DNA of 64,000 bases from a virus: positions 1 through 64,000 of the IMG/VR virus record IMGVR_UViG_3300019757_000003. One strand, written 5' to 3'. This document shows, one piece after another, positions 5,986 to 52,480 of the stretch (its first letter is position 1; each line of letters begins with the position of its first letter). A program made the translations under genes and the position numbers. The notes beneath the pieces are model-generated. The model saw nothing but the letters and a program-made list of their open reading frames with translations, made no database searches and had not been told where the DNA came from.

Positions 5986-6537
5986 ATGTACACATTCACA
6001 CAGACTGAGTTAGTAGTCTTCAATAAACTAACAGAGTTAGACAGATGGAGTATTGTAGGAGCTAAGGCTCTATCATATCATGGATACCATAGATACACAG
6101 CAGATACAGATGTACTCTGTCATACTGTAGTAGCTAAGGATATACTGAAAGTATTCAAGTCGTTAGGCTTTAGTATTAGTATGATGGACACATCACATGC
6201 TGTATGTACTAATGGAGTAGAAGACTTTGATATTCTTATCACTAGTGCACCTGAGTATAGTAATGCTTTAGAAAGAACAGCAGACCATTACACTACAAGT
6301 AGTGGACTATTAGATATGTACCTATTGTCAGATAAGGAACAGAATCAGTATGATGCTGTAAATCTTATCAAGATTACTAGTGCTATACCTAGTGATGTGG
6401 TATTAGACTTAGAAGGTAATAGATACACATACTTCTTAGAAGAGTCTAGGAAAGATATTAAATCTTTTAAACCAAGGCTACTAGAAGATGAGTTTGACTT
6501 AGAGAGTTTACTCTTAGAGTTAGATGATATTGAGTAG
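5986..6537 (+). CDS. Nucleotidyltransferase-fold protein (AbiEii/MNT-like)
   Basis: 183 residues. Residues 23-45 match the signature of the minimal nucleotidyltransferase superfamily: a Gly-Ala helix start (VGAKALSYHG) followed by a T-x-D-x-D pair in YTADTDVL (D40, D42), with a probable third acidic residue at D82 in DFDIL. Proteins of this kind transfer AMP, CMP or similar to RNA or protein and include the AbiEii toxin and MNT antitoxin groups. The first Gly is followed by Ala rather than Gly, so activity is not certain. It begins three bases after the membrane protein and precedes the RNA polymerase, which suggests an early role. No partner toxin or antitoxin lies next to it. Confidence 0.6.
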   Translation: MYTFTQTELVVFNKLTELDRWSIVGAKALSYHGYHRYTADTDVLCHTVVAKDILKVFKSLGFSISMMDTSHAVCTNGVEDFDILITSAPEYSNALERTADHYTTSSGLLDMYLLSDKEQNQYDAVNLIKITSAIPSDVVLDLEGNRYTYFLEESRKDIKSFKPRLLEDEFDLESLLLELDDIE

Positions 6538-14158: not shown

Positions 14159-14234
14159 CTAAAACAACCTAATATCACATTGAATGTGACTCTGTAGAGA
14201 AAAAATGGGTTTGAATCCCTCTAGGTTGTTTTAG
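14159..14234 (+). ncRNA. Cloverleaf-like RNA element with 13-bp closing stem
   Basis: CTAAAACAACCTA (14159-14171) is fully complementary to TAGGTTGTTTTAG (14222-14234). Inside lie TCACAT-TGA-ATGTGA, CTCT-GT-AGAG, and GGG-TTTGAAT-CCC, the last like a tRNA T-arm with a loop close to the TTCRANY consensus. The acceptor is nearly twice the tRNA length and no anticodon arm with a seven-base loop is present, so it is tRNA-like at most. Confidence 0.5.
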
Positions 14235-26674: not shown

Positions 26675-26744
26675 GAAGTCTTAGCTCAGTAGGCAGAGCG
26701 AATCTACCAAGATTGCGTCACTGGTTCGATTCCAGTAGACTTCC
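26675..26744 (+). tRNA. tRNA-like gene with collapsed anticodon loop
   Basis: GAAGTCT pairs with AGACTTC over all seven acceptor positions. The D-arm GCTC-AGTAGGCA-GAGC has A14 and G18-G19, and the T-arm ACTGG-TTCGATT-CCAGT is canonical. The anticodon arm is AATCT-ACCA-AGATT: a perfect 5-bp stem but a four-base loop instead of seven, so about three bases are missing. An alternative 4-bp stem leaves a six-base loop with ACC after a T. The gene is otherwise complete, so it is a phage tRNA with a defective or unusual decoding site, or a decoy. Confidence 0.7.
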
Positions 26745-26854
26745 CAGAGCACTACCTCAGAAGTGAGTTAAGAGAACTAGTCGTTTAATTGACGCAAGTA
26801 TGCCAACTATACTGACTTAGTTGGGCGTAATTAAAAATTAAAGGAATTAAAAAA

Positions 26855-47534: not shown

Positions 47535-48251
47535 ATGAAAATAGAGATAGACAGAAAATATCTAACACTAGATGTAGACACAGTTTCAGAGGGAATTAAA
47601 GAGAATATTATAAGTAACTCAGGTTACTCGTACTTAGACGAGTTTATACTAGCTTATATTACTGTAGATGGTAATATAGTGTTTATTGACAAAGATTATC
47701 TAGTAGAGTCAATAACTAAAGCCAAGCTAGGTTTAGAGTTTTATGATGATGATTATAGCACTTTGTCAGAAGATTCAGTACCTTATATAGGTAGAGAGTT
47801 ACTTGTTACTATGGGAGAACCTAATGGAACATTCTTCTATAGTCTTATAGATGAAGTATGGAATATACTAAGAGAACAATTTGATAGTAAATACCTCACT
47901 TTAAAAGAGTTCACCAGTATACTAGTACAACCTACAGAACTAGTGTCTGTTAAGTACATAGAATACTGCAAACCTTACTTTAAGACAGAAAGAGAGTTAA
48001 TATCACATTTTACAAAGGAGTGGAAAACAGTAGCAACTAAAGAGTACAAAGTTATTCTTGATGTACTTGTAGATACTACAGAACTTGTACCTGTACTAGT
48101 AGAAGCTAAAGATGAAGCTGAAGCTAAGCAATTAGCTATTAAGAAATATGAAGCTAATCCACTAGACTTTGAACCTGGTTTATCAGATGGTAGAGAGGTT
48201 TATGTAAATTTAAACTCAATAAGTGAATGGAAAGTAGAGGAAGTTAAGTGA
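47535..48251 (+). CDS. Hypothetical protein (238 aa)
   Basis: 238 residues, acidic. The C-terminal third reads like a small alpha/beta domain (YKVILDVLVDTTELVPVLVEAKDEAEAKQLAI). It overlaps the Thg1-like gene by four bases, so the two are coupled. No family recognised. Confidence 0.5.
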   Translation: MKIEIDRKYLTLDVDTVSEGIKENIISNSGYSYLDEFILAYITVDGNIVFIDKDYLVESITKAKLGLEFYDDDYSTLSEDSVPYIGRELLVTMGEPNGTFFYSLIDEVWNILREQFDSKYLTLKEFTSILVQPTELVSVKYIEYCKPYFKTERELISHFTKEWKTVATKEYKVILDVLVDTTELVPVLVEAKDEAEAKQLAIKKYEANPLDFEPGLSDGREVYVNLNSISEWKVEEVK

Positions 48252-49144
48252 AAAATAAAGATGAATTTGGTGAAAGAATCAAAGCTTATGAAAGTGAGTA
48301 CGAACAGAGAATACCATATAATGAGTATATTATTGTAAGGATTGATGGTCATAAATTTAGCAGATTTACTAAAGGATTTAAAAGACCTTTTGATACTATC
48401 CTATCTGATACATTTAGAGAGATTACAAGTGCTTTAATTAAAGAGTTTAATGCTGTCGTAGGTTACACACAAAGTGATGAAATTACGTTAGTTATACCAC
48501 CTAACTATGGTAGACACTTAAACAATATTTGTGAAGATACTACTAACAATCAAATCTTTGGAGGTAGAACTCAAAAAATGTCTAGTCTAATCTCAGCATT
48601 TACTACTATGAAGTTTAATGAGATTCTAGCTACACAAGTAAAAGCTAGAAGAGATACGATAAAACGTTCACTTGACTATATAGATGCAGAGAGATTGTTA
48701 GATGAGATGCAAGATACTTTAGGCTATTGGAAACTTATAGACACTAAAAAAGTTGGAAAAGCTTGGTTTGATTGTAGAGTATTTGGAGTACCTGATGAAA
48801 CAGAAGCGTTTAACTCTGTACTATGGAGAATGCACGATTGCACTAAGAATAGTTACTCTCAATTTGCCTATGCTTATTGCTCACATAAAAGTCTACTAAA
48901 TAAGACTGGTCAAGAGATGGTAGAGTTCTGTAAAGAAACTACTGGTAATGATTGGAGTGAAACTGAAGAGAGATTTAAGTATGGAACTATTGTTAAGAAA
49001 CAAGACTACACTAAACCTAAAACAGATGAAGAACACTCACAAGAAACTATTAGAACTAAAACAGTATTCATTAGTAAGAAGTTGAGTTATTCAGAAGAAA
49101 ATGTAGAGTTTTTATTATGTAAGAAATTGGAGGAAGTTAAATGA
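48248..49144 (+). CDS. Thg1-like 3'-5' RNA polymerase
   Basis: 298 residues, GTG start overlapping the previous stop. The N-terminal domain has the Thg1 signature VRIDGHKFSRFTK (D33) and GYTQSDEITLV (D77, E78), the metal-binding carboxylates of the canonical-polymerase-like palm. Later, FDCRVFGVPDETEAFNSVLWRMHDC matches the Thg1 segment that contacts the tRNA. Thg1 adds G-1 to tRNA-His; Thg1-like proteins of bacteria, archaea and protists add templated nucleotides to the 5' ends of truncated tRNAs. A repair role is favoured here because the genome also carries an RNA ligase and defective tRNA-like genes. Which RNA is the substrate is not known. Confidence 0.88.
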   Translation: MKNKDEFGERIKAYESEYEQRIPYNEYIIVRIDGHKFSRFTKGFKRPFDTILSDTFREITSALIKEFNAVVGYTQSDEITLVIPPNYGRHLNNICEDTTNNQIFGGRTQKMSSLISAFTTMKFNEILATQVKARRDTIKRSLDYIDAERLLDEMQDTLGYWKLIDTKKVGKAWFDCRVFGVPDETEAFNSVLWRMHDCTKNSYSQFAYAYCSHKSLLNKTGQEMVEFCKETTGNDWSETEERFKYGTIVKKQDYTKPKTDEEHSQETIRTKTVFISKKLSYSEENVEFLLCKKLEEVK

Positions 49145-50031
49145 GTGCTAGAACACAACAACTTGCACATGATTTTGTGTATGGTAAGAAAGCTAGAGAT
49201 GGTAGTGATTACAGGCAAGTCTGGGTAACTAGTAATCGTCCAGGAGGATTTACTGGTAGACAGATGTGGTATGAAGAGAACTTAATCTACAGCTATGAAA
49301 CAAAACTAGCTCACATAAACAGAGACGATAAGTATATAGTTATGTATGAAGATACTAGAGAGAACTCAAACACTTCAAGAGAACACTATGATAGTTTACT
49401 AGAAGCTATACCTTACGACTATACTATCTACTATAGAAGAAGTGGTATGGCAACGCATAACATTATATATAAACTTGATGAGATAGATGACTTACTAAGA
49501 TTACAAGCTAAAGCTAGAGTAAGAGATTATAGAGATGAGATTGTTTTAATTATAGACAAACTCTACAACTATCTTCACTTCATTAAGTATGATAAGAGAA
49601 AGTCTGAATATAGAGATATAGCTAAAAGACTAGAGTTAATCAATTTAAATAAAAATGAACTAAAAGATAAAATAGCAGAATCTACTAGAGTATACGAGCA
49701 AAGACAAGCTAAAAAACGTAGACAATACAATCTAGCTAATCTTGAACGAAGACAGACAGAACTCTCCAACTTCTTAGAAGAAAACACGACTAAGTATGAT
49801 CCAGACTTTATAGGTGTCAGACTTAAGATTAAAGATGGTTTTCTATACACAGACAATCATATTAAAGTACTAGAGAAAGAAGCTAGATTACTCTATAAGA
49901 GATATACACAAGGTAAAACTATTATTGGTTTGAAACTAGATGGGTACACAGTATTACAAGCTAATAAAGATAGAGTTGTAATTGGTTGCACCACAATCTC
50001 ATCTGAAGAGCTAAAAAGAGTGTTAGGATGA
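49141..50031 (+). CDS. Hypothetical protein coupled to Thg1 (296 aa)
   Basis: 296 residues, no family recognised. Residues 1-110 are mixed (SARTQQLAHDFVYGK, RSGMATHNIIYKLDEID); 150-215 form a basic coiled coil (KRRQYNLANLERRQTEL); the C-terminal part is a small beta domain with a KIKDGFLYTDN strand. It overlaps the Thg1-like gene by four bases and may be its partner. The beginning resembles common phage conserved proteins of unknown role. Confidence 0.5.
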   Translation: MSARTQQLAHDFVYGKKARDGSDYRQVWVTSNRPGGFTGRQMWYEENLIYSYETKLAHINRDDKYIVMYEDTRENSNTSREHYDSLLEAIPYDYTIYYRRSGMATHNIIYKLDEIDDLLRLQAKARVRDYRDEIVLIIDKLYNYLHFIKYDKRKSEYRDIAKRLELINLNKNELKDKIAESTRVYEQRQAKKRRQYNLANLERRQTELSNFLEENTTKYDPDFIGVRLKIKDGFLYTDNHIKVLEKEARLLYKRYTQGKTIIGLKLDGYTVLQANKDRVVIGCTTISSEELKRVLG

Positions 50032-50213
50032 GTAAAACATTTAGAATTGGAGTGTATGAAGAGCAGAGTGGTTCAGTAGTGATAACTGCAAATAGTAAAG
50101 AAGAAGCTGAAAATTACATCATAACATTACTAGAGGAAGATGGACTTGAAGGATTAAAAGACTTTAAAGTTATGGATAGGAGTTATGGTGTAACAGACTC
50201 TGAGGAAATTTAA
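50028..50213 (+). CDS. Small hypothetical protein (61 aa)
   Basis: 61 residues with a beta-beta-alpha start (FRIGVYEEQSGSVVITANSKEEAENYI), a pattern seen in many small phage and plasmid proteins. It overlaps both neighbours. Function unknown. Confidence 0.5.
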   Translation: MSKTFRIGVYEEQSGSVVITANSKEEAENYIITLLEEDGLEGLKDFKVMDRSYGVTDSEEI

Positions 50214-50578
50214 TGCTCAAAGAATTACCTGAACCTAATCCTATAAAGTGGGAAGGTAAAGCATTTCACACTAGTAATCCGAAGTTCAGAGAAAACATTT
50301 TAAAAGAAGGACTGACCCCTCAAATAGGGGAGTGCTACGAACTACATTATGAGAGTTGGTATACATCTAATATGGGACCAGTTGTCTTCTTAAGACTGAA
50401 GGAAGAGAGTGACACACTACCTTGGGATAGTACTTATGATGACGATATTTGGGAAGTGAAAATGGATAAAGAAGTTAAACTATTTGAAGACCCTAGTATG
50501 AAGTTCCCACAAGTCTATACAAAAGAGATAATAAAACCTACAAACCTTAAGCTAATATATAAAGGGACCTGGGAGTAG
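50213..50578 (+). CDS. Hypothetical protein (121 aa)
   Basis: 121 residues. The start FHTSNPKFRENILKEGLTPQ resembles the strand-helix opening of ADP-ribosyltransferase-like folds, but the remaining catalytic residues cannot be identified, so this is only a lead. TAATG overlap with the previous gene. It ends just before a tRNA-like element. Confidence 0.45.
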   Translation: MLKELPEPNPIKWEGKAFHTSNPKFRENILKEGLTPQIGECYELHYESWYTSNMGPVVFLRLKEESDTLPWDSTYDDDIWEVKMDKEVKLFEDPSMKFPQVYTKEIIKPTNLKLIYKGTWE

Positions 50579-50587
50579 GTTACACAA

Positions 50588-50687
50588 CTAGCTAATGTCG
50601 GAAGCACAGAGTACTGAAGAGTACAGACTGGTAAGTCCGATTCTTACGATTGAGGAAGGAAGGAATGGTTCGAGTCCATTCAGCTAG
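50588..50687 (+). ncRNA. tRNA-like element with canonical acceptor and T-arm
   Basis: CTAGCTA pairs with CAGCTAG over six of seven positions (A-C mismatch next to the T-arm), and AATGG-TTCGAGT-CCATT is a perfect T-arm. The 69 bases between them are longer than in a class II tRNA and hold GTAC-TGAAGA-GTAC, GACT-GGTA-AGTC, GTAAG-TCCGATT-CTTAC and a purine-rich stretch. A Tyr-like GTA lies in the GGTA loop. No standard D-arm is seen. It may be a tRNA with an insertion, or a tRNA mimic. Confidence 0.55.
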
Positions 50688-50717
50688 ATACAAAAAAAAG
50701 TAAAATAAAGGAAAGAT

Positions 50718-50771
50718 ATGAGTAAAATAGATTACGGTTCGCAAGAACTATTAGATAAGAAGATCCTATGA
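50718..50771 (+). CDS. Micro-protein (17 aa)
   Basis: ATG 50718 with AAAGGAAAGAT before it encodes MSKIDYGSQELLDKKIL; the stop overlaps the ATG of the next gene (ATGA). It may serve to couple translation. Confidence 0.4.
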   Translation: MSKIDYGSQELLDKKIL

Positions 50772-51088
50772 ATGAAATTAAAGTAGGGATGATATATCAT
50801 AAATTAGACGGTTATACACCTATATATATAGGTCGTAATGGAGCTAAGAATAAAGATGTTAAGAGATACAATCTAGGTAATCCTTTCACTGCTCAAGAGT
50901 TTGGATTAGTAGAATGTATAAATATGTACGAAGACTATTTAAGACAGAATATGGAGCTACTAGACCCATTAAAAGAGGAATTGAAGAAGAATAATATATT
51001 ACTCAAATGCTTTTGTAAGGGTGTTATAGACAACCAGAAACTCTGCCATGGAGATGTTATTAGAAAATTATTAAAGGAAACAATATGA
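50768..51088 (+). CDS. DUF4326-domain protein
   Basis: 106 residues. The DUF4326 pattern is complete: YIGRNG (20-25), KDVKRYNLGNPF (29-40), ECINMYEDYL, LLKCFCKG near 78-85 and CHGDVIRKLL near 93-102. The family has conserved Cys and His and is common in phages; its biochemical role is unknown. It overlaps the micro-ORF and the next gene by four bases. Confidence 0.75.
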   Translation: MNEIKVGMIYHKLDGYTPIYIGRNGAKNKDVKRYNLGNPFTAQEFGLVECINMYEDYLRQNMELLDPLKEELKKNNILLKCFCKGVIDNQKLCHGDVIRKLLKETI

Positions 51089-51372
51089 TAGACTATGAAG
51101 TAGTAGGCAAGATGTTTAAAATTACAATCACAAGAGATTGTATTATGAGAGTTAAAGTTCCAGAGGATACTCCACTAATAGATGTTACCCTATGGAATAA
51201 TAGGTGTAAGGAGATTCTTAAGTACTTTATGGAGAATCCTTATAAGGTTACACTTAGAGCTATGACAAAACAAATAGAGGGTAACTTAGTTCTGAGAGTA
51301 AATAACAACACAAAAGAACCTGTATTTAAAGTAGTAGGTACAGAAGTAAAGGAAATAAATGGAAAACAATAA
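51085..51372 (+). CDS. Hypothetical protein (95 aa)
   Basis: 95 residues, mixed alpha/beta, basic middle (LWNNRCKEILKYFMENPYK). Its tail supplies AAAGGAAATAA, the ribosome binding site of the RNA ligase, and it overlaps that gene by 14 bases. No family recognised. Confidence 0.5.
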   Translation: MIDYEVVGKMFKITITRDCIMRVKVPEDTPLIDVTLWNNRCKEILKYFMENPYKVTLRAMTKQIEGNLVLRVNNNTKEPVFKVVGTEVKEINGKQ

Positions 51373-52480
51373 GAGAAAGTTAGTATCCATAAGAGAGATT
51401 AAAGATTTATTGCCTATTAAAGGTGCAGATTTCATTGAAAACGCAATTGTAGATGGTTGGGGGTTAGTCGTTAAAAAAGGAGAGTTTCAAGTAGGAGATA
51501 TGTGCGTATTTTTTGAAATTGATTGTTTCTTACCTATAGAAGAGAGATACTCATTTTTAGGTAAAACTACTGAATTTAGAAATGCTCAAGGATATAGACT
51601 AAAAACTATTAAGCTGAGAAAGACTTTATCACAAGGATTGGCTTTACCATTGAGTATGTTCCCAGAAATCAAAAGACCTAAGCTAGGCCTAGAAGTAACA
51701 GAACTACTTAAAGTAAGAAAGTGGGAACGTATTGAGAACGTACAGAATGTGCAAAAGTCGAGTAAAGTAAGAGTATTTCCTTCAGAGATACCTAAGACAG
51801 ACCAAGAGAGAATTCAAAACCTAACTTGGTACTTTGACAAATTACAAGATATGGAATTTGAAGAAACCTTAAAGTTAGATGGAAGTTCTATGACTTGCTA
51901 CAAGACTACTGATAAAACACCTTTCTTACAAAGAGTAATCAGATTATTTAAAACAGGAAAATACACTATCCCTCACTTTGGAGTGTGTTCCAGGAATGTA
52001 GAACTATACCAAGATAAACCTTTCTTCAAACTATTCACTAATTCAGATAAAGCCTCTGAATTTAGTACTACAACCTTTTGGGAACTAGCTATTAGAGAAG
52101 ATTTAGAGTCTAAGTTACCATTTGGTTACGCTATTCAAGGAGAACTACTAGACACTAAAATCCAAAGCAATCATGAGAAAGTAGATAGACCAGAGTACAG
52201 AATCTTTGATGTGTATAATATTTTAGAGAAAAGATACTTAACACCTGCAGAGAGGAAAATCTTCCTAGAAACTACTAAGTTAGACTACTTAAGTGTTCCT
52301 ATTGTAGAGCCAAGTATTAAGATATTCAAAAAATGTACTACAGTACAAGATTTACTAAAAAGAGTAGAAGGTATCTCTATGAATCCTCAAACAGTATCTG
52401 AAGGTAGGGTCTATAAGAGTGTAGATGGTAAAATTACATTCAAAGCTGTGAGTAACAAGTACTTAATGAAAGAAGACTAA
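51359..52480 (+). CDS. RNA ligase, Rnl5/DraRnl-like
   Basis: 373 residues. A nucleotidyltransferase core is preceded by an N-terminal OB-type domain (about 1-135), the domain order of the Deinococcus Rnl5 family. Motif I is KLDGSS (K172 as the AMP-accepting Lys), then SRN (211-213), QGELLD (260-265), FDVYN (283-287), EGRVYKS (348-354) and FKAVSNKYL (361-369) as motifs III to V. The enzyme joins a 3'-OH RNA end to a 5'-phosphate, typically at nicks in duplexes or in broken tRNAs. With the Thg1-like gene 2 kb upstream it suggests an RNA repair pathway. DNA ligation is less likely given the N-terminal domain. Confidence 0.85.
   Translation: MENNKRKLVSIREIKDLLPIKGADFIENAIVDGWGLVVKKGEFQVGDMCVFFEIDCFLPIEERYSFLGKTTEFRNAQGYRLKTIKLRKTLSQGLALPLSMFPEIKRPKLGLEVTELLKVRKWERIENVQNVQKSSKVRVFPSEIPKTDQERIQNLTWYFDKLQDMEFEETLKLDGSSMTCYKTTDKTPFLQRVIRLFKTGKYTIPHFGVCSRNVELYQDKPFFKLFTNSDKASEFSTTTFWELAIREDLESKLPFGYAIQGELLDTKIQSNHEKVDRPEYRIFDVYNILEKRYLTPAERKIFLETTKLDYLSVPIVEPSIKIFKKCTTVQDLLKRVEGISMNPQTVSEGRVYKSVDGKITFKAVSNKYLMKED

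What the first reader, a model, noticed from the sequence alone, without database searches (positions are those of the whole stretch)
48248..52480. Phage RNA-end repair set: Thg1-like polymerase plus Rnl5-type ligase
A Thg1-like protein with all three metal carboxylates and a complete Rnl5-type ligase lie 2.2 kb apart in one transcription direction, with a tRNA-like element between them. Thg1-like proteins restore 5' ends of truncated tRNAs and Rnl5 seals 3'-OH RNA. Together they could rebuild tRNAs cut by host defence nucleases or edit the phage's own odd tRNAs. The families are established; their joint pathway is inference. A nucleotidyltransferase-fold protein at 5986 could be a third member.
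Basis: partly seen in the sequence, partly recalled or inferred. Interest (0 to 1): 0.75.

Follow-up and report, generated by a model that had tools for sequence, protein, structure and literature searches.

The report
Phage tRNA-repair genes flanking tRNA-like RNA
A large tailed phage carries, close together, an enzyme that rebuilds the front ends of damaged tRNAs, an enzyme that seals cut RNA and, between them, a small conserved tRNA-shaped RNA; the enzyme pair fits published predictions, but the RNA matches no described family.

Summary
Both genes are real and intact. 48248-49144 is a Thg1-like 3'-5' polymerase of the bacterial (TLP) type with all three metal carboxylates. 51359-52480 is an Rnl5-type RNA ligase (OB domain plus nucleotidyltransferase, motifs I-V). 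They share a strand and lie 2,214 bp apart in a 114-kb virus fragment with an N4/SU10-type portal. The idea that phage Thg1 and RNA ligases form an anti-defence RNA-repair set is published (Anantharaman 2010; Iyer 2021), so the protein pair is a new member of a known kind. Co-occurrence holds: 44 of 58 Thg1-positive viral records carry an ATP-grasp RNA ligase, against 11 of 34 Thg1-negative ones (size-stratified p=0.002). Close linkage is rare but occurs in the best Thg1 homologue. The new part is the element at 50586-50691. A relative phage keeps it with three fully compensated base pairs and none broken, and follows it with an RNA ligase of a different family. It is not a recognisable tRNA and matches no Rfam family. 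Its link to ligases rests on two phages; whether the relative has Thg1 is unknown. The suggested third member (5986) is unsupported. Most likely this is tRNA-end repair against host RNases, with a tRNA-like RNA as decoy, scaffold or substrate.

The parts
48248..49144 (+). Thg1-like protein (TLP), 298 aa; catalytic D33, D77, E78; ~35-aa insertion before FDCRVF compared with other phage TLPs
   Evidence: PF04446 4.2e-27, phrog_4717 8.8e-58, PDB 4kgk BtTLP 1.9e-24, invariant columns in A3
49141..50031 (+). 296-aa protein of unknown function between the two genes; homologue in relative G048 at another place
   Evidence: no family above threshold, no hit in phages, 53% identity in G048
50213..50578 (+). 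121-aa ORF immediately upstream of the RNA element; upstream position conserved in G048 (82% identity over 28 aa near its C-terminus, contig end); function not established
50586..50691 (+). E1: tRNA-like RNA, ~105 nt: acceptor-like stem 50588-50593/50682-50687, D-like stem 50597-50599/50626-50628, hairpin 50611-50624 (5 bp, 4-nt loop), 5-bp/7-nt arm 50631-50647, canonical T-arm 50664-50680; no CCA encoded
   Evidence: homologue in G048 with 15 differences, 3 doubly compensated pairs, 0 broken of 24
50768..51088 (+). DUF4326 protein
   Evidence: PF14216 3.5e-10
51359..52480 (+). Rnl5-type ATP-dependent RNA ligase, 373 aa; motif I K172-LDG, Ia SRN 211, IIIa FDVY 283, IV EGRVYK 348, V FKA 361
   Evidence: PF21189 1.9e-34 + PF09414 8.7e-19, phrog_968 2.5e-86, NgrRnl 5cot 2.3e-61, TIGR02306 2.8e-43, motifs

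Best explanation
The locus is a phage RNA-end repair module that keeps tRNAs usable while the host attacks them. The Thg1-like protein rebuilds missing 5' nucleotides of tRNAs by 3'-5' addition templated by the 3' acceptor strand (activity known for TLPs, inferred here). The Rnl5-type ligase seals 3'-OH/5'-phosphate breaks held in a duplex (activity known for Rnl5, inferred here). The conserved RNA E1 has an acceptor-like stem stacked on a T-arm. It most likely serves this module as a tRNA mimic: a decoy for the attacking nuclease, a scaffold for the enzymes, or a substrate. Shown: gene identities, catalytic residues, statistical co-occurrence of Thg1 with RNA ligases, E1's structure under selection, and E1 followed by an RNA ligase of a different family in each of two phages. 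Inferred: activities, targets and E1's role.
For: Family and active-site evidence. Thg1-positive viral records carry an ATP-grasp RNA ligase in 44/58 against 11/34 without Thg1, CMH p=0.0017 after stratifying by size. In the best Thg1 homologue (G001, 48%) a PF09414/phrog_548 ligase follows Thg1 by 0.4 kb on the same strand. In Vibrio phage D69, Thg1 lies among a CCA enzyme, a nucleotidyltransferase, an Rnl1-like ligase and a polynucleotide kinase. E1 keeps all 24 pairs between two phages, 3 through double changes; chance of no broken pair plus at least 3 double changes about 2e-4. In relative G048, E1 is followed by a different RNA ligase (phrog_14301, 3e-43). Published precedents: PMC2904730, PMC7824862, PMC3701042.
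Against: No end-healing enzyme (kinase/phosphatase) was found in the 114-kb fragment by Pfam, although the fragment is incomplete and small ORFs were not scanned. The AAA_28 kinase at 75446 looks like a nucleotide kinase. Thg1 and ligase are usually not adjacent (10/39 within 10 kb against 6.2 expected). tRNAs are not enriched next to Thg1. Only two E1 homologues exist in the data, and G048 ends before the Thg1 position. No E1-like RNA was found beside ligases in the other phage loci read or in G001.
Confidence: 0.5

Rival explanations
1. Two unrelated RNA-metabolism genes in a gene-dense early region; both are common accessory genes of large phages and their proximity is accidental.
For: Thg1 in 127 and Rnl5 in 318 of 50,697 phage records; adjacency rare; no conserved gene order around Thg1 between this phage and its Thg1 relatives.
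Against: Size-stratified co-occurrence p=0.0017; 5 of 39 within 1.5 kb against ~1.5 expected, p=0.016; clusters in G001 and Vibrio phage D69.
Confidence: 0.3
2. E1 is a divergent phage tRNA gene (type-II, tRNA-Ser(CGA)-like, with a hairpin inserted in its D-loop), possibly dying, that happens to sit near a ligase gene.
For: The arm at 50631-50647 can be read as an anticodon arm (loop TCCGATT; TTCGATT in G048, anticodon CGA); phage tRNA arrays contain many odd Ser-like genes; a second weak copy lies at 78922-79026.
Against: Not recognised by ARAGORN or the Rfam tRNA model even at E=10; position 33 is C in the window and position 37 is U in both; acceptor 7-66 pair is A-C in both; no CCA. Strong compensatory conservation argues against decay.
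Confidence: 0.3
3. E1 is a processing signal: an acceptor/T-arm minihelix cut by RNase P and RNase Z that separates the upstream genes from the ligase mRNA.
For: Acceptor stem plus T-arm is what RNase P/Z recognise (general knowledge); E1 lies in a 189-bp gap between same-strand genes.
Against: The internal hairpin is also compensated, which a pure processing signal would not need.
Confidence: 0.2

Closest known systems
Thg1-like protein (TLP) of Bacillus thuringiensis, PDB 4KGK
   Same: RRM-type palm with three carboxylates, bacterial-type sequence (DCTKNSY here, DASKNSIS in BtTLP, against the eukaryotic-type Thg1 DCHINN)
   Different: about 35-aa insertion before the FDCRVF motif; phage-encoded; activity untested
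Rnl5 RNA ligases: Deinococcus DraRnl (TIGR02306) and Naegleria NgrRnl (PDB 5COT)
   Same: N-terminal OB domain plus nucleotidyltransferase with motifs I-V, full-length match
   Different: 3 bits below the TIGR02306 equivalog cut-off; activity untested
Thg1/PNK/RNA-ligase/MACRO operons of bacteria (Anantharaman 2010, PMC2904730)
   Same: Thg1 and an RNA ligase in one region; RNA repair as proposed role, for phage 201phi2-1 too
   Different: No polynucleotide kinase or MACRO gene found here; a tRNA-like RNA lies between
Jumbo-phage RNA repair sets (Iyer 2021, PMC7824862)
   Same: ATP-grasp RNA ligase plus nucleotidyltransferases; Thg1 listed as sporadic
   Different: This phage has an N4/SU10-type portal and the fragment is about 114 kb; few tRNAs; Rnl5 rather than Rnl1/Rnl2
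YrlA Y RNA (rsr-yrlBA-rtcBA operon, PMC7790460)
   Same: tRNA-like RNA encoded beside RNA-repair enzymes; proposed competitive inhibitor of an anticodon nuclease
   Different: No Ro60/TROVE protein and no RtcB found here; no sequence similarity tested between E1 and YrlA
Coliphage T4 Pnkp + Rnl1
   Same: Phage repair of tRNA cut by host defence
   Different: Different ligase family, no Pnkp found, extra 5'-end polymerase

Membership tests
Thg1/TLP 3'-5' polymerase | PF04446 domain above cut-off | tested here: met
   95.1 bits against 29.2
Thg1/TLP 3'-5' polymerase | three metal-binding carboxylates | tested here: met
   D33, D77, E78 invariant in nine phage sequences, aligned with BtTLP D30/D75/E76 (PMC3701042)
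Thg1/TLP 3'-5' polymerase | bacterial TLP rather than tRNA-His-specific eukaryotic Thg1 | tested here: met
   best PDB match BtTLP (2e-24) against a eukaryotic-type Thg1, 3wbz (6e-4); DCTKNSY in place of DCHINN
Thg1/TLP 3'-5' polymerase | templated 3'-5' addition to 5'-truncated tRNA | not testable with these tools
   needs enzyme assay
Rnl5 RNA ligase | OB domain plus nucleotidyltransferase, no other module | tested here: met
   PF21189 8-98, PF09414 166-363; full-length match to NgrRnl
Rnl5 RNA ligase | motifs I, Ia, IIIa, IV, V | tested here: met
   KLDG 172, SRN 211, FDVY 283, EGRVYK 348, FKA 361
Rnl5 RNA ligase | TIGR02306 (DRB0094) equivalog cut-off | tested here: inconclusive
   148.1 bits against 151.15
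Rnl5 RNA ligase | 3'-OH RNA nick sealing | not testable with these tools
   needs enzyme assay
Phage RNA repair cluster (T4/jumbo type) | RNA ligase plus nucleotidyltransferase in one genome | tested here: met
Phage RNA repair cluster (T4/jumbo type) | end-healing kinase/phosphatase | tested here: inconclusive
   none among Pfam hits of 119 proteins, but the genome is a fragment and small ORFs were not scanned
tRNA (for E1) | recognised by tRNA models | tested here: not met
   ARAGORN default and Rfam at E up to 10 give no tRNA
YrlA/Ro60 Y RNA (for E1) | Ro60/TROVE gene in the genome | tested here: not met
   no TROVE in Pfam scans of the fragment

The most novel reading that the evidence does not exclude
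E1 is the founding member of a phage tRNA-mimic RNA that works with phage RNA ligases of whatever family. It would be an RNA partner (nuclease decoy, enzyme scaffold or obligate substrate) of a phage tRNA-repair system that includes a 3'-5' polymerase.
Probability: 0.25. Interest if true: 0.75.

Novelty: new variant of a known kind. Interest (0 to 1): 0.5.

Why it matters
Why phages carry Thg1-like reverse polymerases has been an open question since 2010. A small locus with Thg1, a ligase and a conserved tRNA-shaped RNA gives a compact, testable case. If E1 proves to be a partner or decoy, it would add an RNA component to phage tRNA repair, in parallel with the Ro60/Y-RNA systems of bacteria.

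Tried and rejected
Single-protein scans for close relatives with Thg1, Rnl5 or the UvrD-like helicase found none; only the major capsid protein and NrdA reached relatives, chiefly G048. A pattern scan with E1's first arm found only G048 plus unrelated tRNA arrays. I first took E1 for a member of a widespread 'double T-arm' RNA class. I dropped this because arms with loops TTCGA/TTCAA are also anticodon arms for CGA/CAA, and several hits are clearly Ser-type tRNAs, so the class is not established. I also considered that all tRNA-likes here have 3-4-nt anticodon loops; this depends on which hairpin is called the anticodon arm and is not claimed. Structure prediction of the 5986 ORF (pLDDT 31) and of the 50213 ORF (pLDDT 39) failed; a resemblance of the latter to ADP-ribosyltransferases is by eye only. 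tRNA enrichment next to Thg1 was tested and not found. A neutral control through NrdA returned too few records, so tRNA-array viral records served as control instead.
Full report
Observation. The window is bases 1-64000 of a 114,270-base virus record, an incomplete linear fragment. I fetched the remainder and compared it with family libraries. The portal is of the SU10/N4 type, the best matches being N4-like phages at 31-36% identity. Ribonucleotide reductase, DNA polymerase A, terminase, primase and helicases are present. The two genes in the finding are exactly where stated, on one strand, 2,214 bp apart.

Thg1. The 298-aa protein scores 95 bits against PF04446 (cut-off 29) and 197 bits against PHROG 4717 'tRNA-His guanylyltransferase'. 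In an alignment with eight phage homologues, D33, D77 and E78 are invariant. They correspond to the metal-binding D30, D75 and E76 of the B. thuringiensis TLP, whose structure is its best PDB match (PMC3701042). At the position where eukaryotic-type Thg1 has DCHINN, this protein has DCTKNSY, as bacterial TLPs do. TLPs repair 5'-truncated tRNAs of many kinds using the 3' acceptor strand as template (PMC3701042), so a role in tRNA-His G-1 addition is not the first expectation.

Ligase. The 373-aa protein has the OB domain PF21189 and the PF09414 ligase domain. It matches NgrRnl over its full length (2e-61) and TIGR02306 (DRB0094 type) over its full length, at 148.1 bits just under the 151.15 cut-off. 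Motifs I, Ia, IIIa, IV and V are intact. From established knowledge, Rnl5 enzymes seal 3'-OH/5'-phosphate RNA nicks in duplexes; this was not tested here.

Co-occurrence. Thg1 occurs in 127 and this ligase type in 318 of 50,697 annotated phage records. Among 50 Thg1-positive viral records over 60 kb, 39 carry an ATP-grasp RNA ligase of PF09414 or PF09511 over the cut-offs. Among 42 records picked without regard to Thg1, 8 have Thg1 (5 of these with a ligase) and 34 lack it (11 with a ligase). Pooled, that is 44/58 against 11/34. The difference is clear above 140 kb (31/33 against 4/10) and only a trend below (13/25 against 7/24); the size-stratified test gives p=0.0017. Related records are not independent and many are fragments, so this is supportive rather than proof. 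Physical linkage is weak: 10 of 39 within 10 kb against 6.2 expected, and 5 of 39 within 1.5 kb against about 1.5 expected (p=0.016). It is seen in the best homologue, G001, where a PF09414/PHROG 548 ligase starts 0.4 kb after Thg1. In Vibrio phage D69, Thg1 lies among a CCA enzyme, a nucleotidyltransferase, an Rnl1-like ligase and a polynucleotide kinase.

The RNA element. Between the genes, at 50586-50691, an acceptor-like stem encloses a short D-like stem, a 5-bp hairpin with a 4-nt loop, a 5-bp arm with a 7-nt loop and a canonical T-arm (GGTTCGAGTCC). Neither ARAGORN nor Rfam, even at E=10, calls it a tRNA, and Rfam offers no credible family. The capsid protein led to one close relative, IMG/VR contig 3300003873_000011 (G048, 62.8 kb, up to 88% protein identity). 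One end of that contig matches the window at 50486-50699 with 83% identity, against roughly 64-82% for most aligned coding stretches. In the element, 15 bases differ. All 24 pairs of the structure are kept: two acceptor pairs and one hairpin pair changed on both sides, two changed on one side, none broken. Random placement of 15 changes gives no break plus at least three double changes in about 2 of 10,000 trials. With only two sequences the inner fold is not settled: RNAalifold prefers a longer hairpin in the middle that is also consistent. A covariance model built from the pair finds only these two strongly, and weakly a second element at 78922-79026 of this phage (E=0.015).

The ligase next to the element differs between the two phages. 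In G048 the RNA is followed, after one small ORF, by a 204-aa protein matching PHROG 14301 'RNA ligase' at 3e-43. This is a different family from Rnl5, with only a weak match to RLIG1. The same gene (50213-50578 here) precedes the element in both. G048 ends before the place where Thg1 would lie, so its Thg1 status is unknown. An RNA element kept in place while the adjacent ligase is of another family is the strongest hint that element and ligase belong together, but it rests on two phages. I found no such RNA beside ligases in the other phage loci I read or in G001.

Function. The best-supported reading is tRNA-end repair during attack by host RNases. Anantharaman and colleagues proposed this for Thg1 with RNA ligases, and for phage 201phi2-1, in 2010 (PMC2904730), and Iyer and colleagues for jumbo phages in 2021 (PMC7824862). 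The two enzymes need not act on one end: a TLP needs a paired template strand, which the acceptor end offers and an anticodon loop does not. No polynucleotide kinase, phosphatase, CCA enzyme, RlaP, RtcB or TROVE protein was seen in Pfam scans of the fragment, so breaks with 5'-OH ends could not be healed by what is visible; nucleases that leave 3'-OH/5'-P would fit better. The role of the RNA is open. A tRNA mimic that soaks up the nuclease has been suggested for YrlA RNA in a bacterial repair operon (PMC7790460).

Third member. The 183-aa ORF at 5986 shows a GAKAL...R.T.D.D motif by eye, as in minimal nucleotidyltransferases, but has no family match and no usable model. It lies 42 kb away and nothing ties it to this locus.

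Verdict. Observation confirmed, interpretation partly supported. The protein pair is a new member of a known kind; the conserved tRNA-like RNA makes the locus a new variant.

Noticed in passing
window 26675-26745: tRNA-like gene with normal acceptor, D- and T-arms, followed by CCA, but an anticodon arm 3 nt short (AATCT ACCA AGATT, or a 6-nt loop); Rfam tRNA 46.9 bits, ARAGORN cannot name an anticodon. Could be a pseudogene, a decoy or an unusual tRNA; the relative G048 does not cover this region.
   Followed up: partly
L002 14922-15026 (genome 78922-79026): Second tRNA-like element with an acceptor-like stem CTAGGT/ACCTAG and T-arm, weakly matched by the model of the 50586 element (E=0.015), in a ~750-bp region without convincing genes that holds further T-arm-like hairpins; no counterpart found in G048.
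   Followed up: partly
window 14159-14234: Intergenic structure: 13-bp closing stem CTAAAACAACCTA/TAGGTTGTTTTAG, inner hairpin TCACAT-TGA-ATGTGA and a T-loop-like TTTGAAT next to the closing stem.
   Followed up: no
L102 about 560-640: In a phage tRNA array, a ~72-nt cloverleaf in which all three arms carry T-loop-like sequence (TTCGATT, TTCGAGT, TTCGAAT) inside one AAGAGAG/CTCTCTT stem.
   Followed up: no
L124 2389-, L127 (minus strand), L181 13263-, L189 7878-: Phage tRNA arrays hold 95-105-nt Ser-like elements whose acceptor (often AGTCAGG) and a CGA-loop arm are joined in several cases by only about 10 nt, as if the D-arm were missing.
   Followed up: no
L045, L054, L089: Thg1 genes lying inside or directly beside phage tRNA arrays, though tRNAs are not enriched next to Thg1 overall.
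   Followed up: partly
genome 64001-114270: A protein with the anti-Pycsar Apyc1 (metallo-beta-lactamase) profile (8.7e-11); this fold also includes tRNase Z, so it is a possible link to tRNA processing.
   Followed up: no
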